Assembly (NCBI RefSeq): GCF_028736115.1
Contig: NZ_CP117877.1
Coordinates: 2,728,001 to 2,792,000 of the forward strand
Source: Mucilaginibacter sp. KACC 22063
GTDB lineage: Bacteria; Bacteroidota; Bacteroidia; Sphingobacteriales; Sphingobacteriaceae
Reading direction: 5' to 3'
Length of the DNA: 64,000 nucleotides
The notes beneath the pieces are model-generated. The model ran no database searches, was not told where the DNA came from, and was given only the letters and a program-made list of their open reading frames with translations. Positions 20,792 through 34,329 of the stretch are shown here, in pieces (the stretch's first letter is position 1; every line of letters starts with the position of its first letter). A program made the position numbers and the translations under genes.

Positions 20792-20812
20792 CACATGGTG
20801 CGCTATTCTGTT
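20782..20812. terminator. Bidirectional hairpin built from two convergent gene ends
   Basis: A perfect 11-bp inverted repeat (AACAGAATAGC / GCTATTCTGTT) with a 9-nt loop. Both stop codons lie in the stem, and a T-rich run follows the stem on the plus strand (TTTTC). It probably terminates both genes. Confidence 0.65.
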
Positions 20813-23001
20813 TTCACATTGCTTGCTTCGGTAAGTGCCCAAAGCATATCGCGTACCTCGGCCGGGTTACGCATATAAAATTTAGCGGCAGAAACATTGC
20901 TGCCTACTTTTATAGTGATCGCGCTTTCAGGCAGGCTTCTAAATATATCTTCGTCTGTATAGTCGTCACCCAAAGCAATAATAAAGTCGTAGTCTTTACC
21001 TTCGGTTAGTGCTAACGCTGCCCTGCCCTTATTAATTTCCATATTCTTCACCTCAACCACCTTGTTACCAGGTAGCAGCTGCAAGCCTTTGTCACTCACT
21101 ATGTATTTCAGCGTATTCATTAATTCACCGGCACGCAGCTCACCAAGGCCGCTTTGTGCCTTACGGTAATGCCAAACTAATGAATAGGTTTTTTCCTCAA
21201 TGAACGTACCCGGCGTACGGTCTACGTAGGTTTCTATAAAAGGATATATTTCCTGTTTCCAGGAGTTGGACAAGCCACTAAGGCGATGCCAGTGTTTACC
21301 CTGCAATTTTGACCATGCACCATGTTCTGCAATCATGTTAACCGGCTTATCGCCAAACCATTCTTCCAGGTTTTCGTGCTTGCGGCCACTGATAATAACC
21401 ACTTCATTTGCGGGGTCGGCAGTTAAATGATCGATCAGGTCATACAGGTCGCTGTCTGGCTTTGCCTGGTCTACAACAGGCTTAAAGTCAACCAGTGTAC
21501 CATCATAATCTAAAAAGATAATACGCTTCTGCGTTTTAGCAAAACGATTAATGATAGACTGCCGGGTGCCGTTACTTACATGGCGTGTTTGCATAGAACG
21601 TTGCATCTGCTTTACCTCAGTCAGCCTGTCGATAAACAACTTTACCCAATGCGTAATATTGAATTTGGCTACCACACTGCGCATTTGTGCCATACGGCGC
21701 CTTTGTTCTGCCAATGGCATATTAATGGCTGTGATAATGGCGCGTGCAATCTCCTGTACATTATTAGGATTTACAATAATGGCATCTATCAACTCTTTAG
21801 ATGAACCGGCCATCTCGCTAAGGATCAATACACCATCATTATTTATCCGACTGGCCACATATTCTTTACTTACCAGGTTCATCCCGTCGCGGATGGGATT
21901 TACCAGACAAACATCAGCCATGCTGTAAAGCGCCGATAACGTTTCTATCGGGAACGGACGGTAAAAGTATTGTATCGGGCTCCAGTCAATGGTACGGTAA
22001 CGTCCGTTAATATTACCAACCCGCTTATCAATATGATCTCTAAGTTCGCGGTATTGCGGCACCTGGTCGCGTGATGGAACAACGATCATATACAGGGTTA
22101 CTTTCCCTATCAGTTCGGGATGATGGTCTAATAAGGTTTCAAACGCCAGGATGCGTTGTAAGATGCCCTTACTGTAATCGAGCCTGTCTACAGAAAGTAT
22201 CAATTTCTGATTATGGAAGGTATCTGTAATAAATTCCACTTCCTTTTTAACAGCTGCTTTTAACGGCATCTGCGCAAATTTATTTTCATCAATCCCCATT
22301 GGGAAAGCTTCGGCTACTATAGAGCGCTCGCCAAAAGTGATTACATTGGCAGAGGCCTGTAAAGGCAATAACCGCGTTACCGAACTAATAAAGTGACGTA
22401 CATAATCAAATGTATGGAACCCGATCAGATCAGCGCCAAGTAACCCCTCTAACAAATCCGCACGCCATGGTATAAGCCTGAACATCTCATGCGACGGAAA
22501 AGGAATATGTAAAAAGAAACCTATCGAGATATCGGGCTGCACATCACGGATCAGCTTAGGTAATAGCATCAGCTGGTAATCATGTATCCAGATGGTATCG
22601 CCTGGTTTTATAACGGCTAATACTGCATCGCAAAATTTCTGGTTAACTGTCTGGTAGCACTCCCAGTTAGACTGATGGTAATGCGCATAAGTAGAAGCAT
22701 AGTAATGAAACACCGGCCATAGTACATCATTAGAAAAACCTTCGTAGTATTTGGTGATCTCGTCTTGTGTCAGAAATACAGGCTGAAGACTAAGTTCTTT
22801 TAATTTTTCGGTAATATCAGTCTGATGATCCTCATCGGTTACCTCTAAACCTGGCCAGCCAATCCACACGTTGTCGCCCTGCTTATAAACAGAACCTAAA
22901 CCTGTTGCTAACCCTCCTTCACTTGCTGATAAATTATAGGTGTCATTTTCAAAAGAAACTTTAACCGGGAGACGATTTGATACAATAACAACTTTTGGCA
23001 T
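20803..23001 (-). CDS. Bifunctional trehalose-6-phosphate synthase/phosphatase (OtsA-OtsB fusion)
   Basis: A 732-residue fusion. Residues 1-465 are a GT20 synthase (VSNRLPVKV, IWIHDYQLMLLPKLI, MGIDENKFAQ, LDYSKGILQRILAFE, NPIRDGMNLVSKEYVA). Residues 485-725 are a HAD phosphatase with nucleophile motif IIFLDYDGTLVDF and a late GDDYTDEDIF Asp motif. It makes trehalose from UDP-glucose and glucose 6-phosphate through the phosphate intermediate, usually for osmotic and desiccation protection. Fused OtsAB proteins are common in Bacteroidota. The gene is separated from the upstream pepSY-like gene by a terminator. Confidence 0.95.
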   Translation of the reverse strand: MPKVVIVSNRLPVKVSFENDTYNLSASEGGLATGLGSVYKQGDNVWIGWPGLEVTDEDHQTDITEKLKELSLQPVFLTQDEITKYYEGFSNDVLWPVFHYYASTYAHYHQSNWECYQTVNQKFCDAVLAVIKPGDTIWIHDYQLMLLPKLIRDVQPDISIGFFLHIPFPSHEMFRLIPWRADLLEGLLGADLIGFHTFDYVRHFISSVTRLLPLQASANVITFGERSIVAEAFPMGIDENKFAQMPLKAAVKKEVEFITDTFHNQKLILSVDRLDYSKGILQRILAFETLLDHHPELIGKVTLYMIVVPSRDQVPQYRELRDHIDKRVGNINGRYRTIDWSPIQYFYRPFPIETLSALYSMADVCLVNPIRDGMNLVSKEYVASRINNDGVLILSEMAGSSKELIDAIIVNPNNVQEIARAIITAINMPLAEQRRRMAQMRSVVAKFNITHWVKLFIDRLTEVKQMQRSMQTRHVSNGTRQSIINRFAKTQKRIIFLDYDGTLVDFKPVVDQAKPDSDLYDLIDHLTADPANEVVIISGRKHENLEEWFGDKPVNMIAEHGAWSKLQGKHWHRLSGLSNSWKQEIYPFIETYVDRTPGTFIEEKTYSLVWHYRKAQSGLGELRAGELMNTLKYIVSDKGLQLLPGNKVVEVKNMEINKGRAALALTEGKDYDFIIALGDDYTDEDIFRSLPESAITIKVGSNVSAAKFYMRNPAEVRDMLWALTEASNVKTE

Positions 23002-23833: not shown

Positions 23834-23861
23834 AAAAAAGCCATTGCGGTTACAATGGCTT
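23834..23861 (-). terminator. Terminator of the kinase/SEDS-PBP operon
   Basis: A 9-bp stem (AAGCCATTG / CAATGGCTT) followed on the minus strand by TTTTTTAG, 21 bases after the stop of the 58-residue membrane protein gene. It marks the operon's 3' end. Confidence 0.8.
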
Positions 23862-23881: not shown

Positions 23882-24058
23882 TTATTTTACACAAAGCACC
23901 TTTTGCTTTACAGGCTTAAGAGATGCAGCCCTTGAAGGTTCGTTGCATTTGCCTAACAAGGTGTAAATAATAATAAAAATGACAATAGTAGACAGGCAGC
24001 CACCGCCAAGTTTTTTAGCACCCCAGGCAGCAATTAATGCGCGGAAAAATTTATTCAT
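23882..24058 (-). CDS. Small membrane protein (58 aa), last gene of the kinase operon
   Basis: A 58-codon ORF starting at ATG 24058, twelve bases after the stop of kinase B, with a terminator right behind it. The protein starts MNKFFRALIAAWGAKKLGGG and has one membrane helix (about 21-37, LSTIVIFIIIYTLLG), then a short basic tail with Cys residues. The spacing and the terminator make it part of the operon. No function is recognised; it may assist a membrane component such as the SEDS-PBP fusion. Confidence 0.7.
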   Translation of the reverse strand: MNKFFRALIAAWGAKKLGGGCLSTIVIFIIIYTLLGKCNEPSRAASLKPVKQKVLCVK

Positions 24059-24070
24059 AAGTAGTTTCAG

Positions 24071-25438
24071 TTAAAAGATCCCTAAAAATTTCTTTCGTTT
24101 TTTAGGTTTAACATACTGCTGCCCATTTTGCTTGCGCCCATTAGTAACTTTTGTACTGTCTGACATCATTGAAGCCCTTATTGCCTCCTGCGCGCGCCTT
24201 GCCGCAGCTGCATTACGTATCATACGCTCATTAATTGCCTGCGTTTTGGCAAGCTTGGCTTTTACATTAGCAACAGAATCGCGCAGAATGGCAATTTTAT
24301 CATCTTTCTGGCTTGCTGAACGGTTAGCCGATAAAGCAAACAGCAATAATAGCAGCATAAAAAATACCATACTAAATACTGCCACTTTGCTCAACCTTAC
24401 ACCCGAAGGTTTGGCATACTCGTTATTTAAAGGCGGGTTTAATAAGGTTCCCCTTGTAGTATTATCATTTGCTACAGCATTCAGTTTCTGTTTTAACAAA
24501 TTGTTTTCGGCTTGTAACTCGGCATTAGTACCTCCGTTGAGGCTTTGCATGGCAATAACATCGTGCAGTGCAACACCATCTGGGTAACGGCCTTCAGGTT
24601 TTTTCTCCAGGCAACGCTTTATAATGTTTAGTAACCAATCGGGCACCTGCATTTCGCGCTCTTTCTTCTCTTCCGACCAATCTTGCGGTAGGTTTTGCCG
24701 TCTTAAAGTCAGCAGATCGGGCACAGGGCTTTCCATATGCTGCAGCATTACATTGTTTCTGCCTGTTTCACTGCTGCCATTTAAAGGGAACGGGACCTGG
24801 CCTGCAAGTAACTCAAACAGGACAACCCCAAAACTGTAAACATCCGTTTGATAAAGCATCTGGCCCTGATTTTGCTCAGGTGCCATAAATTCAATTGCCC
24901 CCGCATGGCGCATACTACTACGGCGCTGCTCGTCAGACATTACAGCCAATCCAAAATCTAACAGCACATAATTACCTGTCTGTATATTAAATTTTACGTT
25001 GTTGCTTTTTATATCGCCGTGCCTTACCCCTACACCGTGACAATGGCTTAAAGCACATGCCAGCTGATCGGCAACTTTGATTGTTTCCTTAATGGTGAAA
25101 ACCTTTCCGTGAGGTGGTTTTAACAACTCTTCCAGATCAGGACCGTCGATATATTCCATCTCGATAAATGGAAATGAACCACTCTCTGTAATCCCTGAAT
25201 TAAGAATTTTTACCACGTTAGGATTAGGTACTTCGTTTACTTTTTTAAGCTTTTCAACCTCGTTTAAAAAGTTACGGTAGTTGCTGTCGTCAGGGCTTTC
25301 ATTATATATGGGCGTAGGTATCAGCTTTACCGCTGTAATAATTGCCCCTGTACGCCGTGCCTTATACACCGATCCCTGGCCGCCTGTACGCAGCGCACCT
25401 AAATTTTCTAATCCTTCTGTTATGGTAAAAACTTTCAC
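24071..25438 (-). CDS. Membrane Ser/Thr protein kinase B (PknB-like, GTG start)
   Basis: A 455-residue Hanks-type kinase. The kinase domain covers about 10-295: Gly loop RTGGQGSVYKA, VAIK-type Lys38 (TAVKL), catalytic loop HGDIKSNN (Asp142), DFG at 161-163, APE at 186-188. The usual HRD Arg is Gly, so it is a non-RD kinase. A short coiled coil (305-322) and one membrane helix (about 352-371) follow, then a periplasmic Ala/Arg/Lys-rich tail of about 85 residues with no PASTA repeats. GTG is the first possible start, because an in-frame TAA stands directly before it. By eye its kinase domain is about three-quarters identical to kinase A at the operon's front. Confidence 0.93.
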   Translation of the reverse strand: MKVFTITEGLENLGALRTGGQGSVYKARRTGAIITAVKLIPTPIYNESPDDSNYRNFLNEVEKLKKVNEVPNPNVVKILNSGITESGSFPFIEMEYIDGPDLEELLKPPHGKVFTIKETIKVADQLACALSHCHGVGVRHGDIKSNNVKFNIQTGNYVLLDFGLAVMSDEQRRSSMRHAGAIEFMAPEQNQGQMLYQTDVYSFGVVLFELLAGQVPFPLNGSSETGRNNVMLQHMESPVPDLLTLRRQNLPQDWSEEKKEREMQVPDWLLNIIKRCLEKKPEGRYPDGVALHDVIAMQSLNGGTNAELQAENNLLKQKLNAVANDNTTRGTLLNPPLNNEYAKPSGVRLSKVAVFSMVFFMLLLLLFALSANRSASQKDDKIAILRDSVANVKAKLAKTQAINERMIRNAAAARRAQEAIRASMMSDSTKVTNGRKQNGQQYVKPKKRKKFLGIF

Positions 25439-25445
25439 TTATTAA

Positions 25446-26228
25446 TTACATTGATGGCTTGAAACTGAATTCTATAACAGCCGATTCACCTAAAATAACC
25501 TGATCCCCTTCCTGTAACCGGTGCCCTATTTGGGTAGAGTTAAGCTTGATCAGGTTTTCATCATTAACAGACCTGATTTTAATTTTGTTTCCGGGTGGTA
25601 CACCGCCTTCATCGGCGAAGATCATAAAGCTATCATGCTCGTCGCTCCACTCGATATGGGCATGTTGCCTGCTGATATATTTATTACTTTCGTTTGCAGC
25701 ATCACCGGGAAAAGCGATTTGGTTGATCCTGAAAAAACCGTCCTTTACTTGCACCTTACGCTCACGGCCGATGTTCACCTTTGAATCATCCGAATGAAGC
25801 TCATACTGTTCTTTTTCAGCTTCGCCGGCTAATACCCGCACATAAGCCGTATAAGACTTTTGTATCACGTGCTGCTTGGTGCGAATAAACAAAGCCGCAG
25901 GAAGATTAGCAACCTTGATTGCCTCAGACGGCAACTCCTCAACAAAGTTGGTATCCAGCGCCCAGCCAGAAGGCAATGCTAAAGCATAATCATCAGCAAT
26001 GCGTTGTATTTCCTGCTTAAACTGATCAGGTTGTTCTACCCCTATCGCAGCTTCGTATAAATGGCGGTCTTCTGGCAAACAGGCAATAAACAATTGCAAA
26101 CCTTTAATGGCATCACCTTCGCCTTCCATTTTTTGCAATTGGTCTTTTACAAATCGCAATAAAGCATCACGCAAACCTTTAACATCGGTTGGGCGTTCGT
26201 TCGAATTACTTTTAAACAGGTTGAACAT
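25446..26228 (-). CDS. FHA-domain protein
   Basis: A 260-residue cytoplasmic protein. Residues 1-145 are an unassigned helical/mixed region. Residues about 150-255 are a forkhead-associated domain with the conserved VNIGRER turn, SRQHAHIEW and the late LQEGDQVILG. FHA domains bind phosphothreonine peptides. In this operon (between the SEDS-PBP fusion and kinase B) it is a likely reader of kinase A/B phosphorylation, much as FhaB is in mycobacteria. Confidence 0.88.
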   Translation of the reverse strand: MFNLFKSNSNERPTDVKGLRDALLRFVKDQLQKMEGEGDAIKGLQLFIACLPEDRHLYEAAIGVEQPDQFKQEIQRIADDYALALPSGWALDTNFVEELPSEAIKVANLPAALFIRTKQHVIQKSYTAYVRVLAGEAEKEQYELHSDDSKVNIGRERKVQVKDGFFRINQIAFPGDAANESNKYISRQHAHIEWSDEHDSFMIFADEGGVPPGNKIKIRSVNDENLIKLNSTQIGHRLQEGDQVILGESAVIEFSFKPSM

Positions 26229-26241
26229 AACTTCTCATATC

Positions 26242-29200
26242 TTATTGTTGTGCCGATGTATCTGGTTGTTCATCAGCAGGTTCCTCAGTTTTTATAATTG
26301 TTTTAGCTGGCTTTACAGCACTTGCAACTGCTTTGTTAGCTAAAATACTTTTTATGTAGCCTTTCTTTAGCAGTATGGGCACAATGTCTTTCCCGGCAAG
26401 ATGCACCGCATTTGATGAGCCTTTGGTATTTTCAATACGGATACATGTTACAATGGTACCCTTACCATCGGCCTTTGGCGCAAAGAACACATACCACCCA
26501 TCATTGATCTGTTCGCCCTTCCAGATACGCTCGGGCGTACCGGTTTTACCAGCGACGTTTAATCCCAAGATCCACGCTTTTGGTGCGCTCTGCTCAATCA
26601 TGTATTGCGTAATAAGCTGTGCATATTGCGGGTTATTAGCCAGATCAGCGCTTTTATGTACCGCTGTAACCGAATCGCTTACTTTAAGAACGTAACGATT
26701 AGCCATTAAAGTACCGTGATTAGCCACTCCGGAAACAAGTCGTGCAACGGAAGCGGGTGTAGCAATCAGTTCGCCCTGTCCCCAAGCCATACCGGATATG
26801 CCCTTTGCCCGTGTTTTACGGATGTTATTAGGATCATAAGGCGGCTTGGTTTTAAATTCTGTTTTGCGCCATAGTTCCCGCCATTTTTCTTCTTGTTTAA
26901 TATTATCCGGCTTTTTACCATAGAAGTACCCGCCTACACCGTGCAGAAACATACCTGTCTTCATATACAACGTCGCCATATCTTCCTGCAAATGTTCCTC
27001 ATTGGCCAGTTTTATAAAGTAAACGTTATTGGATTTGGCAATAGCGCGTTCCATGGTAATTAATCCTGTTTCGTCGGGCTCAAAACCTTTTGTACGAATA
27101 CGCTCAAAGCTTTGTACTTCAAACTTGCGGTCGGCAGCGGCAATGCCCAGTTTATTAAATGCAGCCATAGAAGTAAGCACCTTAGCTGTTGAACCCGGTG
27201 GCGTAGCGTAGGTAAAGCCTAAGTCAGTAGTGGTCATCCAATACGGTAAGGTATTTTGCTCCGATTGACTCATGGTCAGTTGATCCCAGTTACGTACAGG
27301 CGGTAAAGGATAAACAGCTGATGCCAGTACATCGCCGGTTTCGGCTTCCATTACGACCACTGATACCCGGTTGTTTTTCACAGAATCGTCCGCAGCAAGT
27401 GATTGTTGTATATTGGTTTGTAACGAAGCATCCATACTAAGCTGAACATTACGGTTACGCTTTTTGAAGGCTTCAACATCGGCGCTGTTGATACCGGCTA
27501 AGAGTAACGGTGCAATGGCGCTGTAATCAGTTTTGGCAACCGTCATTTCCTTTACATTTCTTGGCAGAAAGCGGTCTTCCTGGAAACGGGATGCCGTTAC
27601 GTTAAAGCTGGTTACAGGCGTTTTAAAGCCACGCAATTCTGCGGCGTGTTCATATTCGGCAAAGTAACCGTTAGTGCTGCCATTGAATACACCCGTATTT
27701 TCATCGCCCACCCAAAAGAACATCTGCTCTTCAAAAGGGTAATAACGGTCTAAACGTTTGTGCGTGGCCGAATCCAGATTATAATTCTGTATGCCCGCAT
27801 TGCTGAGCATCTTTATCTGCTTACGGATCAGCTCGGGATTACTGGTTGCTAATACCAAGCCATTACGGTCATACAATGACCCTGCCTGTAGCTTGTTCAT
27901 TAATATAGCAATGCGCGGATTGTAACTAAACATACGCGCACCGCTTTTATCGGCAACAAGTGCAGGTTGTACCACCCATTTTTTATTGTTGAATAAATAT
28001 TTTGAAACGCTCAACGTCAGCAATACTAAACCAACGCAAGCGGCCAGTAAGGCAGGTACCAGGTTTTTGTCCTGCTTTTCGGCAATGTAAGTCATCTGTA
28101 CCGGTGTACCCTTAACCCTTGATGCTGATAGCAGGAAACCTACTGCTACAAGATTTGCCACCAATGATGAACCACCATAGCTTTCAAATGGCAGGGAAAC
28201 ACCTGATAATGGTAAAGCCCCAACGGAGCCGCCCGCAATCAGCAAAAATTGCACAAACGTACAAATACCTATGCCCGCACATAAATAGAATAAAAATGGC
28301 GTACCCGTTTGTCGCCCGATATTTATCGCGCGGTGGAGGATCATCAGGAACAGGATGAAGATGCAAACGATCCCTGTCCAGCCAAACTCTTCCCCGATTG
28401 ATGGCAGTATCATATCTGTATGCGCTTCAGGAATGGTTTTGGCAAAACTTTCGCCAGCCCCTTGCCCGGTAACACCACCTGCCGACATAGCCCATAAACC
28501 GTTAGCTACCTGATCGCCGCCATATACTTCGTTGTTCCAAGGGTCTTGCCAAATAGCTTTACGTTCTTTTAAACGCTGAACCGGTCCTGCAAAATACTGA
28601 TCAAGATGCGGGATCTGATCAATCGTCAGAAATGCCATCATGATTATCAGCGTCATGATTGCTGATTCACTTAGTTGCCTGCGTTTGTAAAGCATAAACA
28701 GCGCAATGACAGCTCCGGCTACAAGTGTAGACAACCAGATATTTTTAAGCAACCATATAGAAAGCACATACAACACCACAGATGCAGCCATAAAAGTAAA
28801 GTCGCCGCGGGAGAAGGAGAAAAGAATGATGAAGGTAAAACACACCACCATTGCAGGTCCTAAATCGCCCAATATCAGGAACAGCATCAGCGTGGCCAAA
28901 ATAGCCAGCAAGGCAAAACCGAAAAATGTAAGGCGTTTTTTAAATGTAGGGTACTCGCTGATAAAGCGCTCATTTGCGGCAAAGAACCCCGCCAGAAACA
29001 ATACTACCAGATATTTGACAAACTCACTCGGCTGAAAGCCAAAAAGATTAACCCTAACACCGCTACCTTCGGGGCCTGTACCAAATTTAACCAGCATAGC
29101 CAGCAAACCAATTGCAATAACAATCCAGGGCCAGCCATTGGCAGCACTGTTGGTGTTTTTAAATACAAACAAGCGGTATAAAGAAGCGTCCGGATTAAAC

Positions 29201-30393
29201 CTGCGTACATTAAAAGCCTGGATAACCAACAAGGCAACCATGCCCAAAGCAAAATAATTAAGTGTATCGCGTGCAAGGAAACGGTCGCGCAATGGATCCT
29301 GAATACTTAGTAGTGCTAAAAACGAAAGCCCGGTTAATATCATGATCAATGGCAGCAAAAGCTGATCTGCTTCAGCAAACCAAACGCTCATGATGATATG
29401 CACGATCAGAAATGCCGCGAAAAAACATCCGGCAATGATCCAGTACCATTTATTAAAATCCTGCGGAGTGCGGATAATCAGCGATTTCTCTTTCTTCAGA
29501 ATATTAAAATCACGGGTAGGTAAAAGTTTGACGGTATGTGGCGCTTGCTGGAAAGTGAAGGAAGCATCTTCTGTAAGCTCTGTTACACCCTGTGAACGCC
29601 CAAACTGGTAGCCCGGTTGCAATGGCAATAACTGGAATGCCTTACCATCCGGCAGGTTTTTAAATGCAAACTCACCTTGTGCGTTAGTCCTTGCGTAAGC
29701 AGTAAGTGATTGCAAATGCTTTTGCTTAGCAGAATCTAATGCGAAAATCTTTTTTACAGTGTTGCTGCTATCGGTAAATGTCTGCGGTTCTCCGTCGTCG
29801 TTATCTGTGCTGATACTATCCTGGGGTAAAACTAATCTTAGCCTTACCAACACACCCGCAACAGGTTCTTTTTTATTAAGTACCGAACCACTAATGCTGT
29901 AATGCCCTATGGCCAAATCATTTGCATCTGCGATTTGCGGCGGATGGTTACGTTCCTGTACAAAGCGAATAGAATCGTCGCCTGTGTAGCCTAATAAAAC
30001 CCTGGAAGCCTCTACCCTTTTCCTGAATGATTCACCACCTTTTTCAAAAGCTTCATCGGCGTTTACAAAAAACTGCTTTTTGTTTAGTTCGCCAATATTG
30101 TCAAATGTTTCACCCGGTCTTATGCGGTCAGCAACTACCGATTCGATCAGGTCAATATCTTTTTTATCATCAAAATAATAGCCTTTTCCTAATAAGCGCT
30201 TTACTTGTGCGGCAGGTCTTTTGGCATTAAGATTAACCATGGTACCATCCTGCAAACGGCTATTTACATCTGTAAAGTTGCGTTGCAATACCTGGTACAA
30301 TTCGAAGAACAACAAGCCAAGCACAACGGTTGCCAGCAGCAGGAAAAGCCTCTCTTTTGTTCGTGAAGGTTTTTGAGGTAGATGTTGTTCCAT
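26242..30393 (-). CDS. RodA/FtsW (SEDS) - class B penicillin-binding protein fusion
   Basis: A 1383-residue membrane protein joining both halves of a peptidoglycan synthase. Order: membrane helix (15-36); extracytoplasmic region with a carboxypeptidase-regulatory/SpaA-like beta domain (about 160-290, YSISGSVLNKKEPVAGVLVR and TNAQGEFAFKNLPDG); SEDS glycosyltransferase core (about 315-760, GFQPSEF 452, DLGPAMV 510, PEAHTD 655-660, LPFESYGGSS 734-743); an anchor helix (777-800); then a PBP with dimerisation region (GSLYDRNGLVLA) and transpeptidase. All catalytic motifs are intact: SxxK S1068/K1071, SxN S1121, KTG 1283-1285. Elsewhere these are separate interacting proteins. The ATG follows the PP2C stop directly (TAAATG). 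Confidence 0.95.
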   Translation of the reverse strand: MEQHLPQKPSRTKERLFLLLATVVLGLLFFELYQVLQRNFTDVNSRLQDGTMVNLNAKRPAAQVKRLLGKGYYFDDKKDIDLIESVVADRIRPGETFDNIGELNKKQFFVNADEAFEKGGESFRKRVEASRVLLGYTGDDSIRFVQERNHPPQIADANDLAIGHYSISGSVLNKKEPVAGVLVRLRLVLPQDSISTDNDDGEPQTFTDSSNTVKKIFALDSAKQKHLQSLTAYARTNAQGEFAFKNLPDGKAFQLLPLQPGYQFGRSQGVTELTEDASFTFQQAPHTVKLLPTRDFNILKKEKSLIIRTPQDFNKWYWIIAGCFFAAFLIVHIIMSVWFAEADQLLLPLIMILTGLSFLALLSIQDPLRDRFLARDTLNYFALGMVALLVIQAFNVRRFNPDASLYRLFVFKNTNSAANGWPWIVIAIGLLAMLVKFGTGPEGSGVRVNLFGFQPSEFVKYLVVLFLAGFFAANERFISEYPTFKKRLTFFGFALLAILATLMLFLILGDLGPAMVVCFTFIILFSFSRGDFTFMAASVVLYVLSIWLLKNIWLSTLVAGAVIALFMLYKRRQLSESAIMTLIIMMAFLTIDQIPHLDQYFAGPVQRLKERKAIWQDPWNNEVYGGDQVANGLWAMSAGGVTGQGAGESFAKTIPEAHTDMILPSIGEEFGWTGIVCIFILFLMILHRAINIGRQTGTPFLFYLCAGIGICTFVQFLLIAGGSVGALPLSGVSLPFESYGGSSLVANLVAVGFLLSASRVKGTPVQMTYIAEKQDKNLVPALLAACVGLVLLTLSVSKYLFNNKKWVVQPALVADKSGARMFSYNPRIAILMNKLQAGSLYDRNGLVLATSNPELIRKQIKMLSNAGIQNYNLDSATHKRLDRYYPFEEQMFFWVGDENTGVFNGSTNGYFAEYEHAAELRGFKTPVTSFNVTASRFQEDRFLPRNVKEMTVAKTDYSAIAPLLLAGINSADVEAFKKRNRNVQLSMDASLQTNIQQSLAADDSVKNNRVSVVVMEAETGDVLASAVYPLPPVRNWDQLTMSQSEQNTLPYWMTTTDLGFTYATPPGSTAKVLTSMAAFNKLGIAAADRKFEVQSFERIRTKGFEPDETGLITMERAIAKSNNVYFIKLANEEHLQEDMATLYMKTGMFLHGVGGYFYGKKPDNIKQEEKWRELWRKTEFKTKPPYDPNNIRKTRAKGISGMAWGQGELIATPASVARLVSGVANHGTLMANRYVLKVSDSVTAVHKSADLANNPQYAQLITQYMIEQSAPKAWILGLNVAGKTGTPERIWKGEQINDGWYVFFAPKADGKGTIVTCIRIENTKGSSNAVHLAGKDIVPILLKKGYIKSILANKAVASAVKPAKTIIKTEEPADEQPDTSAQQ

Positions 30394-31842
30394 TTATTTC
30401 TTTGAGGTGGTACTTGTTGTATCGGTTTTAAATACTGTTGATGGCAACCAACCGGTTATACTTTTCCCCTGCGGTGTACTGAATGAAACCTGCACAGGCA
30501 TTTTGCAATTGCTAAACTTTACGCCACGCAGCACAAGGTTATTATTGTAAGAACCAATCGCCGTTTCAAAGCCATCAAAACTTACATGGTAAAAAACGAC
30601 TACCTTGTTTTTGTCAGATAAATGGAACGCGGGGCCTTTGAACGCTGAATCGGCTTTAAAAACGATATTTCCTTTACCCTTAATATATAAGGTGTCCTTA
30701 GCGATACTGATAGTGCTATCTATAGCAATCGGAGTTTTATAAGCCGTGTCAGACAGATTTAAAGTATCACCTTTTAATGAAGCTATCTGGCTCATCAATT
30801 TTTGCTGACTTGCACTTAAAGTTTTTGCCGCAGTAGTGTCTTTAGGGGCTACGCTTCCTTGTTGTGAAACTGGTTTACCTTTCAGATATAACCAAACAGT
30901 AGAACCTAAAAACAACAGGCACAACAATGTTAGTATCGTAACCACTCCTTTATTATTAGTGTTTTTAATAACGTGGTTATCAATAACTGGCTCCTCCTCT
31001 TCTACTGTGCGATGATTTTCAGGCTCGGGTTCTGAAGATGGTTTACTTTTAGGCTCAATTGCTGCCGGCATTACTGCATTTTGACGGGCAGGTGACTTAT
31101 CATTTTTAACCAGTACCGCGGTAATATTATCGTGCCCGCCATTATGGTTAGCCAGGTTAACCAGGTTTTTGGCTTTTTCTTTTAATGAATTTGGCGCGGC
31201 TAAGATCTCAGTCAGATCGTGCTTATTTACCATATCGGTAAGGCCATCGCTGCAAAGCAACAGCAAATCACCCGGTAAAAATGGCGAGGTACCTGTCTCA
31301 ACATAATTCTGCTGATCGCGGACATTGGATTCAAAGCCAAGCGCTTTGTTAATTTCATTACGTTTTGGATGACCCATCGCCGCCTCTTCGGTTAGCCTGC
31401 CGCTATCTTCCAGGAAACCCACGAAAGAATGGTCGTTTGTAAGCTTTACTAATGATCCGTCGCGAAACAAATACAAACGTGTATCACCAATATGACCGTA
31501 ATACAACTGGTTGTTTTCTACATCGGCTACTACCAGCGTACAAACACACGCCATACTTTCCAGCTTTTTATCGGCTATGCGCTCCTGGAAAATATTATCA
31601 TTGGCAACAAGAAATGCCTCATCTATGGCTTTCTCAATATTGTTTAATTTGCCATCCAGTTGCTCGATCAATGTTACGCGGGCAATGCCTGCTGCAACCT
31701 CGCCGCCCGAGTAGCCTCCAACCCCATCTATGGCAGCAGCAATGATGTACTTACCGTCAGATGTAGGCTGGGCAATGTAAGCATCCTCGTTATTACTACG
31801 CTGCTTACCAGTATCTGTTATTCCAAAATAGTTTTCAGCCAT
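30394..31842 (-). CDS. Membrane PP2C-type Ser/Thr phosphatase (PstP-like)
   Basis: A 482-residue phosphatase starting at ATG 31842 (MAENYFGITDTGKQR); the longer frame upstream reads through a micro-ORF region. The PPM/PP2C domain spans about 1-245 with all metal-binding motifs: NNEDAY, AAIDGVGG (Asp39), LLCSDGLTDMV (Asp199), GGHDNITAVLV (Asp238). An acidic linker, one membrane helix (299-320) and a periplasmic domain of about 160 residues follow. That domain has short repeated beta-strand patterns resembling a parallel beta-helix (IAKDTLYIKGKGNIVFKAD, NLVLRGVKFSNCK). It should reverse phosphorylation by kinases A and B. A periplasmic sensory domain on a PP2C is unusual. Confidence 0.92.
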   Translation of the reverse strand: MAENYFGITDTGKQRSNNEDAYIAQPTSDGKYIIAAAIDGVGGYSGGEVAAGIARVTLIEQLDGKLNNIEKAIDEAFLVANDNIFQERIADKKLESMACVCTLVVADVENNQLYYGHIGDTRLYLFRDGSLVKLTNDHSFVGFLEDSGRLTEEAAMGHPKRNEINKALGFESNVRDQQNYVETGTSPFLPGDLLLLCSDGLTDMVNKHDLTEILAAPNSLKEKAKNLVNLANHNGGHDNITAVLVKNDKSPARQNAVMPAAIEPKSKPSSEPEPENHRTVEEEEPVIDNHVIKNTNNKGVVTILTLLCLLFLGSTVWLYLKGKPVSQQGSVAPKDTTAAKTLSASQQKLMSQIASLKGDTLNLSDTAYKTPIAIDSTISIAKDTLYIKGKGNIVFKADSAFKGPAFHLSDKNKVVVFYHVSFDGFETAIGSYNNNLVLRGVKFSNCKMPVQVSFSTPQGKSITGWLPSTVFKTDTTSTTSKK

Positions 31843-31933
31843 TACGTTTTCCCGAACTTTTAATATCATTAAAATGCGCTGCCAGTAACAGCACACATAC
31901 CACAAGCAGGCCTATTGATAAAATATGCGACAT
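31835..31933 (-). CDS. 32-residue single-helix membrane micro-ORF
   Basis: The ATG at 31933 overlaps the stop of the preceding FHA-like gene (TGATG), and its TGA lies just inside the PP2C start (ATGGCTGA), so it is coupled at both ends. The predicted peptide MSHILSIGLLVVCVLLLAAH plus a short basic tail is one membrane helix. The double coupling makes translation plausible. Conservation has not been checked, and the function is unknown. Confidence 0.5.
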   Translation of the reverse strand: MSHILSIGLLVVCVLLLAAHFNDIKSSGKRNG

Positions 31934-32886
31934 CAGCTTTTGAAAATATTAATGCCTACAATACCGTTTAAAATAATGCGAGAGTTATAAGGCAATCCTA
32001 TCCATTGTGGTGAATTGATATCGCTTGCCGGTACTTCATTTTCATTAATCATTGTTTTTTCTCCGAAAGAAGCTACATATAGATTACCATCGGCTGTATT
32101 AAAACGGATCTGCAAATGCGGACTGTTCACCCACTCAGATGGTATCTTAAACAGGTTGTCTTCTTCGCGGGTATCTTCGCTGCCCGAAACAATAATATCT
32201 TCATTACGCATCAGGTATTCAACCTTTTTACCGCTGAACTGTCTGTCGGGCAATATGGTCTCCAGCCTTGCATAGGTTTTAACATCCTTTTGCTGTTGTG
32301 CAGGCTCGTCTTTAAACTGCAACTTATCTTCATAAGGCAACTCGTAATAACCCTCGCTGTAATAGGTAAAGTCTTTTAGCACTTCCTGGCTCACGTCAAA
32401 GGTTTGTGCGATACCCGTTTGTCTTGGGATAAATGTTACACGCAGGTTTTCTTCTTTTTTATTGCTTTCGGGAAGCAGCTTACCAATGAAGCCTTTATCA
32501 CCTTTGCTATACTGCGGGTTTGATACCAGCCTGAACACCCATTTTGAACTTGACGGAGCTACCGTTTTACCCTGTGCCCGGTATTCATTTAGAACCTCGT
32601 AAAATTTCTTCACGCATTCGTTAACAATAAGGCCGAAGATTCCTTGTTTGTTATCCATAAATTCGCGGTAGTCCTGCGTGCTGAAGATGATAATAAACTC
32701 GTGGTAAAATACTACCCTATCGGCAAATGAAAGCTGGGCAATGGAATCAGTGAACTTTTGAATGATGTATTTATAAACATCATCGGGTGTAAGTGCATCA
32801 GGTATTTTGATCTTGCCCTGACCGGCATTAGTTAAAAACCAATCTTGTATGCCGAGGCGTTCCCAAAAGTTAGGTTTCGATTCCAT
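31933..32886 (-). CDS. FHA-like protein with FhaA-type N-terminal region
   Basis: A 317-residue protein starting at ATG 32886 (MESKPNF; the preceding TTG is ignored). Residues 1-130 form a helical/strand domain (VVFYHEFIIIFSTQDYREF, then VNECVKKFYEVLNEYRAQG) whose pattern recalls the DUF3662 N-domain of mycobacterial FhaA. This is a resemblance by eye. The C-terminal 95 residues look like a degenerate FHA domain (VNSPHLQIRFNT, INENEVP, NSRIILNG) that lacks a clear GR...SRxH pair. It is encoded directly after kinase A (42-base gap). Confidence 0.7.
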   Translation of the reverse strand: MESKPNFWERLGIQDWFLTNAGQGKIKIPDALTPDDVYKYIIQKFTDSIAQLSFADRVVFYHEFIIIFSTQDYREFMDNKQGIFGLIVNECVKKFYEVLNEYRAQGKTVAPSSSKWVFRLVSNPQYSKGDKGFIGKLLPESNKKEENLRVTFIPRQTGIAQTFDVSQEVLKDFTYYSEGYYELPYEDKLQFKDEPAQQQKDVKTYARLETILPDRQFSGKKVEYLMRNEDIIVSGSEDTREEDNLFKIPSEWVNSPHLQIRFNTADGNLYVASFGEKTMINENEVPASDINSPQWIGLPYNSRIILNGIVGINIFKS

Positions 32887-32928
32887 CAAGTAAATTATAT
32901 AATCTAAATTTAAATCATTCCTTCAACA

Positions 32929-34329
32929 TCATAATTCAGATGATGTTTGCAAAGCTTGTGTTTGATCGTTGTTTGCATCTCCCTGTTCAGGGTTAACCGG
33001 AGTTGTATTTGTTGTATCTGTCTGTGGCTTTATGCTGGTGTCAGGCACATTGTCCGGTTGTTGTTTAGCAGGCTTTATTTTTTGCGTATCATTAGTGCTA
33101 TCTGGGTTTTGATTTACAGGATTCTGTCCAAGCGGCACACCATTATCTCCGATAGAATTAGTCTTGTTTGCGGTATCGCTTCTTACTGAATCTGTAAACG
33201 TGCTATTTTTGTTGGGATCTACATGATTATTCTTATAGAATAAGGTATAATAACCCGCCATAACCATTGAGCTGACCAGCAAAATGATCATCAAAATAAA
33301 AAGAGGCTTTGATATCTGCACATTTGACGACTGATCTTCCATTGCCGCATTTTTGGCAATAGGATCATAAAGCAAGGCACGCAAACGTTCGTTTTCTGCC
33401 TGTAGTTCACCATTGGTAGCGCCAGAAATACTCGACTTATTTATGGCATCATGAAGGGCTATTCCATTAGCATAACGGCTTTCCGGATTTTTAGCCAGGC
33501 AAGTATTAATCAGCCTTACCAGCCAATCAGGCACCAGCATTTCGGTAGCCTTTTTTTCATCACTCCAAGTGGCAGGTAAGTTCCTTTGCCTCAACGATAG
33601 TAGATCCGGAGGCATTTCCTCAATGTGTTTTAACCGTACAGTGTTCCTGGCATTCTCGCTGTTATCTGTTAATGGGAAAGGCACCTGCCCTGCCAGTAAC
33701 TCAAACATCACTACACCATAGCTGTAAATGTCCGTTTGAAAAAGCATTTGCCCATCGTTTTGTTCAGGTGCCATAAACTCTATAGCACCTGCATTACGCA
33801 CACTGCTGCGGCGCTGCTCGTCAGACATGATAGCCAATCCGAAATCAAGCAATACATAATTGCCCGAATGGATATTAAATTTTACGTTATTGCTTTTGAT
33901 GTCGCCATGTTTAACACCTACTTTATGGCAGTGGCTTAGCGCACACGCTAACTGATCAGCAACTTTAATAGCCTCTTTAATGGTGAAAATTTTATCGTGA
34001 GGCGGCTGCAATAGTTCTTCCAGGTCAGGGCCCTCAATGTATTCCATTTCAATGAAAGGAAACGAACCGCTTTCGGTAAGCCCCGAGCTAAGTATCTTTA
34101 CCACATTAGGATTAGGTTCCTGATTAACCTTTTTCAGTTTTTCAACCTCATTCTGAAAACGGCGGAAGTTTTTATCATCCTCGCTTTCATGGTAGATCGG
34201 CGTGGGTATTAGCTTTACTGCCGTCATGATAGGGCCAACGCGGCGGCCTTTATATACAGACCCTTGTCCACCGGTGCGTAAAGCCCCCATGTTTTCCAAA
34301 CCCTCGGCTATTGTAAAAACTTTACTCAT
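32929..34329 (-). CDS. Membrane Ser/Thr protein kinase A (PknB-like)
   Basis: A 466-residue Hanks kinase, first gene of the operon. The kinase domain is about 10-296: RTGGQGSVYKG, Lys39 in TAVKL, HGDIKSNN (Asp143, non-RD), DFG 162-164, APE. A coiled coil (about 305-320) and a membrane helix (about 343-366) follow, then a periplasmic tail of about 100 residues rich in Asn, Thr, Gln and Pro, with no PASTA repeats. It is a paralogue of kinase B, differing mainly outside the kinase domain. It probably phosphorylates the FHA proteins and cell-wall synthesis proteins of the same operon. No clean TAnnTTTG box was found upstream (TATATTAG is the nearest match). Confidence 0.93.
   Translation of the reverse strand: MSKVFTIAEGLENMGALRTGGQGSVYKGRRVGPIMTAVKLIPTPIYHESEDDKNFRRFQNEVEKLKKVNQEPNPNVVKILSSGLTESGSFPFIEMEYIEGPDLEELLQPPHDKIFTIKEAIKVADQLACALSHCHKVGVKHGDIKSNNVKFNIHSGNYVLLDFGLAIMSDEQRRSSVRNAGAIEFMAPEQNDGQMLFQTDIYSYGVVMFELLAGQVPFPLTDNSENARNTVRLKHIEEMPPDLLSLRQRNLPATWSDEKKATEMLVPDWLVRLINTCLAKNPESRYANGIALHDAINKSSISGATNGELQAENERLRALLYDPIAKNAAMEDQSSNVQISKPLFILMIILLVSSMVMAGYYTLFYKNNHVDPNKNSTFTDSVRSDTANKTNSIGDNGVPLGQNPVNQNPDSTNDTQKIKPAKQQPDNVPDTSIKPQTDTTNTTPVNPEQGDANNDQTQALQTSSEL

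What the first reader, a model, noticed from the sequence alone, without database searches (positions are those of the whole stretch)
23882..34329. Operon coupling two Ser/Thr kinases, PP2C phosphatase, two FHA proteins and a SEDS-PBP fusion: a Bacteroidota counterpart of the mycobacterial pknAB-pstP-rodA-pbpA-fhaAB locus
Eight genes run on one strand with gaps or overlaps of about 45 bases or less, ending at a terminator (23834-23861). The content (two kinases, one PP2C, two FHA proteins, RodA and PbpA) matches the actinobacterial cell-wall signalling locus almost part for part. The order differs, RodA and PbpA are fused, PASTA domains are absent, and two small membrane proteins are added. 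Either an ancient module was kept in rearranged form, or the same set came together twice. The inference is that kinase A/B phosphorylation, read by the FHA proteins and reversed by PP2C, controls a built-in peptidoglycan polymerase/crosslinker.
Basis: partly seen in the sequence, partly recalled or inferred. Interest (0 to 1): 0.85.

Follow-up and report, generated by a model that had tools for sequence, protein, structure and literature searches.

The report
Mobile kinase-controlled cell-wall synthase cassette
A soil bacterium carries a compact gene set in which protein kinases, a matching phosphatase and phosphate-reading proteins sit next to a fused cell-wall-building enzyme; relatives carry the same set at different places in the genome, once on a plasmid, so it looks like an optional, movable, self-regulated wall-building kit that resembles a conserved locus of actinobacteria such as mycobacteria.

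Summary
Confirmed: eight minus-strand genes (34329-23882), gaps at most 39 bases: kinase, FHA protein, 32-aa membrane peptide, PP2C, SEDS-PBP fusion, second FHA protein, second kinase, 58-aa membrane peptide, terminator. It is a recurring module: FHA-A/PP2C/fusion/FHA-B keep order and strand in 66 of 66 loci over 20 kb; kinases number one to three and move between the ends. A homologous micro-peptide follows FHA-A in 78 of 78 readable loci. It is accessory: 36 of 52 listed genus genomes; flanks shared by 11 of 120 genome pairs against 120 of 120 for rodA-pbp2; tree conflict with core genes; a complete copy on a Spirosoma plasmid (typed non-mobilizable). The fusion's SEDS groups with actinobacterial RodA and a clostridial FHA-linked SEDS (100/99), not Bacteroidota RodA (AU 0.0097); Bacteroidota FtsW is not excluded (AU 0.167). 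PBP, PP2C and kinase trees leave deeper origin open. Best reading: an auxiliary, phosphorylation-gated peptidoglycan synthase cassette, a fused, mobile Gram-negative variant of the actinobacterial locus rather than its fixed counterpart. Function is inferred, not shown.

The parts
32929..34329 (-). Kinase A: Hanks-type Ser/Thr kinase, HGD (non-RD) catalytic loop, one TM (about 343-361), Pro/Thr-rich C-terminal part, no PASTA hit
   Evidence: PF00069 124 bits; HGDIKSNN; TM by hydropathy
31933..32889 (-). FHA-A: N-terminal domain (about 1-190) without a Pfam match above cut-off, plus cryptic FHA fold (201-318) without the canonical Gly-Arg
   Evidence: three of 13 scanned members of alignment A4, the Spirosoma copy among them (22.2 bits over 20.7), match PF00498
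31835..31933 (-). smA: 32-aa single-TM micro-peptide, overlapping FHA-A stop and PP2C start
   Evidence: Homologue in 78 of 78 loci with a readable FHA-A end; 32 equal-length copies: mean pN 0.27 against pS 0.75, pN<pS in 496 of 496 pairs
30394..31842 (-). PP2C phosphatase with one TM (about 300-318) and C-terminal, probably periplasmic, part; the only PF13672 match in the genome
   Evidence: (NF033484 207.6 bits, below its 230 cut-off)
26242..30393 (-). SEDS-PBP fusion: TM about 12-36, N-terminal extension about 37-318 (weak CarboxypepD_reg hit, E 0.014), SEDS about 319-760, TM about 778-796, class B PBP to 1383
   Evidence: HTDM 78 of 78, SxxK 78 of 78, KTG/KSG 77 of 78 frames over 1250 aa
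25446..26228 (-). FHA-B: N-terminal alpha/beta part plus FHA domain (about 124-258) with Gly-Arg and SRxHA
   Evidence: PF00498 26.0 over 20.7; Z 14.6 to 6hc0, rmsd 2.1, 101 aligned
24071..25438 (-). Kinase B: paralogue of kinase A (78% identical in the kinase domain), HGD, one TM
23882..24058 (-). smB: 58-aa membrane ORF at the operon end; conservation not shown
23838..23861 (-). Terminator-like stem-loop with T-run

Best explanation
This is an accessory, horizontally moving cassette that encodes a complete peptidoglycan synthase together with its own phospho-switch. The fused SEDS-PBP polymerises lipid II and crosslinks the strand as a third synthase beside FtsW/FtsI and RodA/PBP2. One to three transmembrane kinases sense an envelope condition through their outer parts and phosphorylate cassette proteins inside the cell. 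FHA-B (intact phosphothreonine site) docks on phosphorylated kinase or synthase; FHA-A (degenerate FHA) and the micro-peptide act as scaffold or assembly parts; the membrane PP2C resets the switch. The signal probably reports wall stress, when the housekeeping synthases do not suffice. Shown here: gene content, conserved order, intact catalytic motifs, accessory distribution, different genomic sites, a plasmid copy, SEDS kinship in trees. Inferred: every functional step.
For: FHA-A/PP2C/fusion/FHA-B in one order and strand in 66 of 66 loci over 20 kb, each with one to three kinases beside them. SEDS, PBP, PP2C and kinase motifs intact. The host has separate FtsW and RodA and other transpeptidase-domain proteins (the names PBP2 and FtsI are by neighbourhood), and the cassette holds its only two Pkinase matches over cut-off and only PF13672 match. 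Complete set on a Spirosoma plasmid. Flanks differ (11 of 120 pairs against 120 of 120). Tree conflict with core genes. SEDS kinship.
Against: No transcript, phosphorylation, growth or enzyme data. FHA-A lacks the canonical Arg and the kinases are non-RD, so the phospho-docking model may fail for parts. 32 of 66 loci have only one kinase. The Spirosoma plasmid is typed non-mobilizable, and no transfer genes or mobile element were sought. SEDS separation from Bacteroidota FtsW is not significant in the larger tree (AU 0.167) and the fusion stem is long (1.92). The PBP tree is unresolved (AU 0.32 and 0.31). The AU test also rejects one core tree against another, so only the well-supported conflicts count for transfer.
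Confidence: 0.58

Rival explanations
1. Backup or bypass synthase against wall antibiotics: the cassette is a mobile, inducible SEDS-PBP pair whose transpeptidase tolerates beta-lactams, and the kinases switch it on when the housekeeping enzymes are blocked. This is a special case of the best explanation.
For: Accessory, at varying sites and in soil lineages; in the PDB the PBP part scores best with PBP2a (1.8e-9), with PBP5 further down (2.2e-6) (that these are low-affinity enzymes is recalled).
Against: Those matches are weak, no stretch passes on its own, and two ordinary-named PBPs (4mnr, 4ovd) rank between them; no resistance gene is annotated beside the Spirosoma copy and none was seen by eye beside the window's; no MIC data.
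Confidence: 0.25
2. The same working parts came together independently in Bacteroidota and Actinobacteria (convergence), with no common locus ancestor.
For: DUF3662 and PASTA were not detected; PP2C and kinases do not group with PstP and PknA/B in the best trees; PBP unresolved; SEDS with Bacteroidota FtsW not rejected in the larger tree (AU 0.167); three of the five actinobacterial RodA in that tree (L216-L218) show no FHA, PP2C or PBP gene beside them by BLAST, so the shared clade is actinobacterial RodA, not locus-linked RodA alone.
Against: SEDS splits with actinobacterial RodA and the clostridial FHA-linked SEDS from all other rows at 100/97 and 100/99; SEDS with Bacteroidota RodA is rejected (AU 0.025; 0.0097); cassette kinases with PknA/B are not rejected (AU 0.254 for the HGD kinases; 0.047 for the Spirosoma-type); 14 of 66 loci are nearly collinear with the actinobacterial locus.
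Confidence: 0.3
3. The kinases and phosphatase regulate other cell targets, and the synthase is only a neighbour.
For: Kinases change number and position; no phosphosite is known.
Against: A kinase is beside the block in 66 of 66 loci over 20 kb; this genome has no other Pkinase match over cut-off.
Confidence: 0.12

Closest known systems
Actinobacterial fhaA-fhaB-pstP-rodA-pbpA-pknA-pknB locus (read here in Actinomyces oris, Nonomuraea, Arthrobacter; PMC6554272, passages)
   Same: Same working parts; PP2C followed by SEDS then class B PBP; kinases at the 3' end in 14 of 66 loci; SEDS domain in the same tree group
   Different: SEDS and PBP fused, with a new N-terminal extension; no PASTA hit; no detectable DUF3662 in either FHA protein; second FHA gene after the PBP; micro-peptide added; non-RD kinases in the Sphingobacteriaceae and Chitinophagaceae loci; accessory and at varying sites rather than conserved
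Clostridial FHA-SEDS-PBP gene trio (Monoglobus pectinilyticus)
   Same: FHA gene directly before SEDS and class B PBP; SEDS in the same tree group
   Different: No kinase or PP2C annotated in the 17.9-kb stretch shown; separate genes
Canonical RodA/PBP2 and FtsW/FtsI pairs
   Same: Same enzyme families and motifs
   Different: Separate genes; shared flanks for rodA-pbp2; different SEDS branch in the best trees (RodA rejected; FtsW rejected, not)
Other single-frame SEDS-PBP fusions (natural examples cited in PMC10449877 section 6 through its reference 18, a Rhodococcus RHA1 genome paper that I did not read; engineered E. coli RodA-PBP2)
   Same: One polypeptide with both activities; the engineered fusion is active (passages read)
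   Different: No extension or phospho-cassette described in the passages I read
IreK/IreP, StkP/PhpP and PrkC/PrpC kinase-phosphatase pairs (recalled)
   Same: Kinase-PP2C switch tied to the wall
   Different: PASTA kinases without a SEDS-PBP fusion or FHA partners in the operon (recalled)

Membership tests
Actinobacterial pknAB-pstP-rodA-pbpA-fhaAB locus | PASTA-domain kinase | tested here: not met
   No PASTA hit at E<=1 in either window kinase; NF033483 138.9 and 137 bits against cut-off 450. Relatives' kinases not scanned
Actinobacterial pknAB-pstP-rodA-pbpA-fhaAB locus | FhaA with DUF3662 N-terminal domain | tested here: inconclusive
   No DUF3662 hit in 13+13 members; hhalign aligns only the FHA part at about 1-1.5% probability; fold lists filled by FHA
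Actinobacterial pknAB-pstP-rodA-pbpA-fhaAB locus | PP2C followed by SEDS then class B PBP on one strand, with FHA and kinase genes adjacent | tested here: met
   66 of 66 loci over 20 kb; compared with L135, L134, L136. In the three Spirosoma-type loci read, two kinases lie between PP2C and fusion
Actinobacterial pknAB-pstP-rodA-pbpA-fhaAB locus | RodA and PbpA as separate genes | tested here: not met
   One frame over 1250 aa in 78 of 80 loci; the other two are cut by contig ends
Actinobacterial pknAB-pstP-rodA-pbpA-fhaAB locus | SEDS in the actinobacterial RodA clade | tested here: met
   100/97 and 100/99; AU against placement with Bacteroidota FtsW 0.0098, then 0.167
Actinobacterial pknAB-pstP-rodA-pbpA-fhaAB locus | PBP in the PbpA clade | tested here: inconclusive
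   AU separates neither placement (PbpA 0.324, Bacteroidota PBP2 0.309)
Actinobacterial pknAB-pstP-rodA-pbpA-fhaAB locus | Conserved throughout the lineage | tested here: not met
   36 of 52 listed genus genomes, 58 of 251 family genomes; fusion in 10 of 395 class genomes
SEDS glycosyltransferase | PF01098 match and HTD motif (role of the Asp recalled) | tested here: met
   160 bits; HTDM 78 of 78
Class B PBP transpeptidase | PF00905 and SxxK/SxN/KTG motifs | tested here: met
   91.6 bits; SxxK 78 and KTG/KSG 77 of 78; S1121 and N1123 invariant in 21 of 21 (the SxN pattern was loose)
Hanks-type kinase | PF00069 with catalytic Asp | tested here: met
Hanks-type RD kinase (PknB-like activation) | Arg before the catalytic Asp | tested here: not met
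   HGD in 112 of 112 kinases over 380 aa in the 80 loci; HRD in 6 of 6 Spirosoma-type cassette kinases
Stp1/IreP family PP2C (NF033484) | Curated equivalog cut-off | tested here: not met
   207.6 bits against 230; PF13672 is over its cut-off
FHA domain (FHA-A) | FHA fold | tested here: met
   Z 14.5 to 3unn, rmsd 2.2, 104 aligned
FHA domain (FHA-A) | Gly-Arg phosphothreonine site | tested here: not met
   Aligned position reads Ser-Gly (21) or Thr-Gly (1) in 22 of 22, Ala-Arg in the 3 Spirosoma-type copies; register taken
FHA domain (FHA-B) | PF00498 over cut-off with Gly-Arg and SRxHA | tested here: met
   26.0 bits over 20.7; GR 71 of 76, SRxHA 76 of 76
Type VI secretion PpkA/PppA/Fha control | T6SS structural genes nearby | not tested
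   No search made

The most novel reading that the evidence does not exclude
A self-contained, horizontally transferable peptidoglycan-synthesis operating unit: polymerase, crosslinker, sensor kinases, phosphatase, phospho-readers and an obligate 27-36-residue membrane peptide, descended from a Gram-positive RodA lineage that is often FHA-linked, and run by Gram-negative Bacteroidota as a third wall machine next to the elongasome and divisome.
Probability: 0.38. Interest if true: 0.8.

Novelty: new variant of a known kind. Interest (0 to 1): 0.62.

Why it matters
SEDS-bPBP pairs are usually taken as core machines. A patchy cassette, once on a plasmid, that brings such a pair together with its own phospho-switch would show that whole wall-synthesis control units move between bacteria. 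It also gives a dispensable, fused system in non-pathogens in which the question of how FHA/kinase/PP2C circuits gate a SEDS-PBP synthase can be tested without lethality. The conserved micro-peptide is a new candidate regulator.

Tried and rejected
Kinase replacement: the Spirosoma-type kinases are HRD and the others HGD, which suggested a swap. A first tree left them apart and an AU test gave 3e-5, but that test left out L191, a cassette kinase inside the HGD group, so it was invalid; rebuilt without six long rows both kinds are one side of a branch (95/92, with a long-branch warning). Swap not supported.

FhaA N-terminal domain: the helix-strand order of FHA-A and FHA-B recalled DUF3662; Pfam and hhalign gave nothing, and neither fold list showed it (the FHA part fills both lists). 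Left open.

PBP origin: stems of 2.6-3.0 changes per column; unresolved.

AU test for transfer: rejects the other tree both ways but also rejects core against core, so I rely on conflicts between branches at 95 or more: 3 pairs with rodA-pbp2, 3 with the ftsW block, 0 between those two.

Virus link: no relative of FHA-A in phages; 108 pattern matches in viral contigs, none confirmed; plasmids gave one Spirosoma record.

Literature: searches returned nothing; 39 (8 listed of 8), (15 of 44; 15 of 38; 3 of 3; 8 of 24) returned listings, in which no title or abstract start describes this cassette. PMC6554272 and PMC6213207 were seen as found passages, PMC10449877 as passages, outline and the first of two parts of its reference list. 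Unlisted papers and subscription journals were not seen.

Dropped rows: ALF_FtsW_L139 and nine Bacteroidota rows; six PBP rows (two of them duplicates); six kinase rows; 12 Bacteroidota kinase rows without an H[RG]D motif; L136 RodA (split frame) from the SEDS trees. One row labelled FtsW (L147) fell in the RodA group and was treated as RodA from then on.
Full report
OBSERVATION. Eight minus-strand genes between 34329 and 23882 were confirmed with gaps of at most 39 bases and three overlaps or abutments, followed by a 10-pair stem and T-run. Pfam and NCBIfam scans give two Hanks kinases, a PP2C, one FHA domain over cut-off (FHA-B), and SEDS plus transpeptidase in one frame. FHA-A is missed by Pfam, yet its model has an FHA fold (Z 14.5, rmsd 2.2, 104 aligned; block pLDDT 76-94 in that part, 86 or more from residue 221; whole model mean 77.5, pTM 0.49). 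The window is G000:C1:2728001-2792000 of a 4.8 Mb single-contig genome; its fusion is 81% identical (best segment) to that of Mucilaginibacter straminoryzae, so the organism is probably a Mucilaginibacter (inference).

HOW OFTEN. The search for related loci gave 117 stretches, 104 relatives, 80 kept, in Mucilaginibacter, Pedobacter, Daejeonella, Flavisolibacter, Segetibacter and others. In all 66 loci over 20 kb the block FHA-A, PP2C, fusion, FHA-B keeps order and strand; kinases are 1 (32 loci), 2 (32) or 3 (2), before FHA-A, after FHA-B or both (one locus has FHA-A split in two frames). These loci were found through the fusion, so they do not test how often the other genes occur without it. 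In part the FHA-A search does: of the 26 genus genomes common, the 16 with FHA-A show 4-5 SEDS pieces and the 10 without show 3 (a long frame is listed for 15 of the 16; the list is capped).

DISTRIBUTION. FHA-A profile: 9 of 395 phylum genomes; 58 of 251 in the family, 7 of 25 genera, 36 of the 52 genus genomes listed. Fusion profile at E<=1e-150: 10 of 395 class genomes. Three of those ten belong to a family coded f10 and hold a divergent fusion; two were read (L107, L108): FHA-A, PP2C, kinase, kinase, fusion (39-40% identical over nearly its full length), FHA-B. The same set lies complete on a 137-kb circular plasmid of Spirosoma oryzicola; I call these three loci Spirosoma-type. The genes annotated on either side there are of other kinds, and MOB-suite types this plasmid as non-mobilizable.

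MOBILITY. In 16 same-genus genomes the genes flanking the cassette are shared by 11 of 120 genome pairs; genes flanking rodA-pbp2 in the same genomes are shared by 120 of 120 (genes of 150 aa or more outside the central 11.4 kb of 19.9-kb stretches). Ten genes around the window's cassette have no match at E<=1e-30 in 61 of the 66 loci over 20 kb; the other five match only the FtsX-like one, at 28-42% identity. The FHA-A+fusion tree shares 4 of 13 splits with rodA-pbp2 and conflicts with it at three pairs of branches supported at 95 or more; it conflicts at three with ftsW and five neighbours; those two core sets share 6 splits and have no such conflict. The conflicts concern the window's genome and the group G535/G576/G987. 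Pairwise identities of cassette and rodA-pbp2 still correlate (Spearman 0.51). Together this supports at least one transfer within the genus on top of partly vertical descent; different sites alone could also come from rearrangement.

PARTS. Fusion: N-terminal TM, about 280-residue extension probably in the periplasm (topology inferred from hydropathy), SEDS with HTDM in 78 of 78, PBP with SxxK in 78 of 78 and KTG/KSG in 77 of 78 frames over 1250 aa. Kinases: HGD in 112 of 112, so activation-loop control as in PknB is doubtful; Spirosoma-type cassette kinases are HRD (6 of 6). PP2C: DG.GG and GD.R in 77 of 77. FHA-B keeps the phosphothreonine site; FHA-A reads Ser-Gly or Thr-Gly where Gly-Arg is expected (22 of 22; register), Ala-Arg in the Spirosoma-type copies. 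Micro-peptide smA: 28-36 aa, one TM, most copies ending in HF followed by (D/E/S)IK, in 78 of 78 loci with a readable FHA-A end (76 at first reading, L046 and L063 after a second look), and 27 aa after FHA-A in both Spirosoma-type loci looked at (L107, L132). In 32 equal-length copies mean pN is 0.27 against pS 0.75 (496 pairs). I regard it as a real gene.

ANCESTRY. SEDS tree of 48 rows: fusion with actinobacterial RodA (2) and the Monoglobus FHA-linked SEDS at 100/97; AU rejects fusion with Bacteroidota RodA (0.025) and FtsW (0.0098). With five actinobacterial RodA and other added rows the grouping is 100/99; RodA is again rejected (0.0097) but FtsW is not (0.167). Three of these five RodA (L216-L218) are not beside FHA, PP2C or PBP genes by BLAST, so the clade is actinobacterial RodA in general. 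The fusion stem is long and many phyla are unsampled, so I hold this kinship as likely, not proven. PP2C: cassette copies of both Bacteroidia groups form one clade, 100/99, without special kinship to PstP. Kinases: both groups together at 95/92 with a long-branch warning; AU does not reject the HGD kinases with PknA/B (0.254). PBP: unresolved. Within Bacteroidia the cassette therefore looks co-inherited; direction and donor across phyla are open.

ACTINOBACTERIAL COMPARISON. Actinomyces oris (annotated), Nonomuraea and Arthrobacter (by BLAST, some Arthrobacter frames split) show FhaA-FhaB-PP2C-RodA-PBP-kinase-kinase. Fourteen of 66 Bacteroidota loci differ in order only by fusion and the place of the second FHA gene; the window has one kinase at each end. 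PMC6554272 (passages) states that the locus is conserved throughout Actinobacteria, that pstP is cotranscribed with rodA and pbpA, and that pstP alone restored growth after knockdown of all three. PMC10449877 (passages and references) states that natural single-frame SEDS-PBP fusions exist and that an engineered E. coli fusion is active, so fusion alone is not new.

MECHANISM. The host has its own FtsW and RodA genes and further transpeptidase genes, while its only over-cut-off Pkinases and its only PF13672 PP2C lie in the cassette. The simplest reading is an auxiliary synthase with a private on/off switch. Phosphorylation targets, signal and benefit are unknown. Wall stress or antibiotic bypass is my preferred use, supported only by accessory distribution, soil lineages and weak similarity of the PBP to PBP2a.

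VERDICT. Observation confirmed; interpretation partly supported; new variant of a known kind; interest 0.62. On checking I lowered the two main odds slightly (0.60 to 0.58 and 0.40 to 0.38) because the plasmid is typed non-mobilizable and the RodA clade is not confined to FHA-linked genes.

Noticed in passing
L053 and L055 (contig NZ_LGEL01000011.1, 186141-210115 and 61858-85832 reversed): One Pedobacter panaciterrae contig carries the cassette twice in opposite orientation, one copy with FHA-A split into two frames; duplication or assembly artefact not resolved.
   Followed up: no
L133:6882-9867: Monoglobus pectinilyticus (Clostridia) has FHA, SEDS and PBP genes in a row on a record filed as a plasmid; its SEDS groups with actinobacterial RodA.
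   Followed up: partly
plasmid collection: Of 210 records in the plasmid collection with a SEDS match, 55 are Enterococcus and 34 Priestia (some records are chromosomes filed as plasmids): accessory SEDS genes may be a wider theme.
   Followed up: no
L137 and L222: Two Streptomyces plasmids carry closely related FtsW genes next to an undecaprenyl-diphosphate phosphatase gene; in L137 a BlaI/MecI-type regulator and an M48 metalloprotease gene lie close by.
   Followed up: no
G649:C6, G664:C13, G667:C24, G671:C113: Genomes of other Bacteroidia families have PP2C genes within a few kb of kinase genes; they are not among the ten fusion-bearing genomes.
   Followed up: no
L065, L077, L084: Flavisolibacter loci hold the longest cassette kinases (up to 638 aa), possible lineage-specific sensor parts.
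   Followed up: no
window 20803-23001: Single frame that reads like a fused trehalose-6-phosphate synthase/phosphatase near the cassette; identity by eye, not searched.
   Followed up: no
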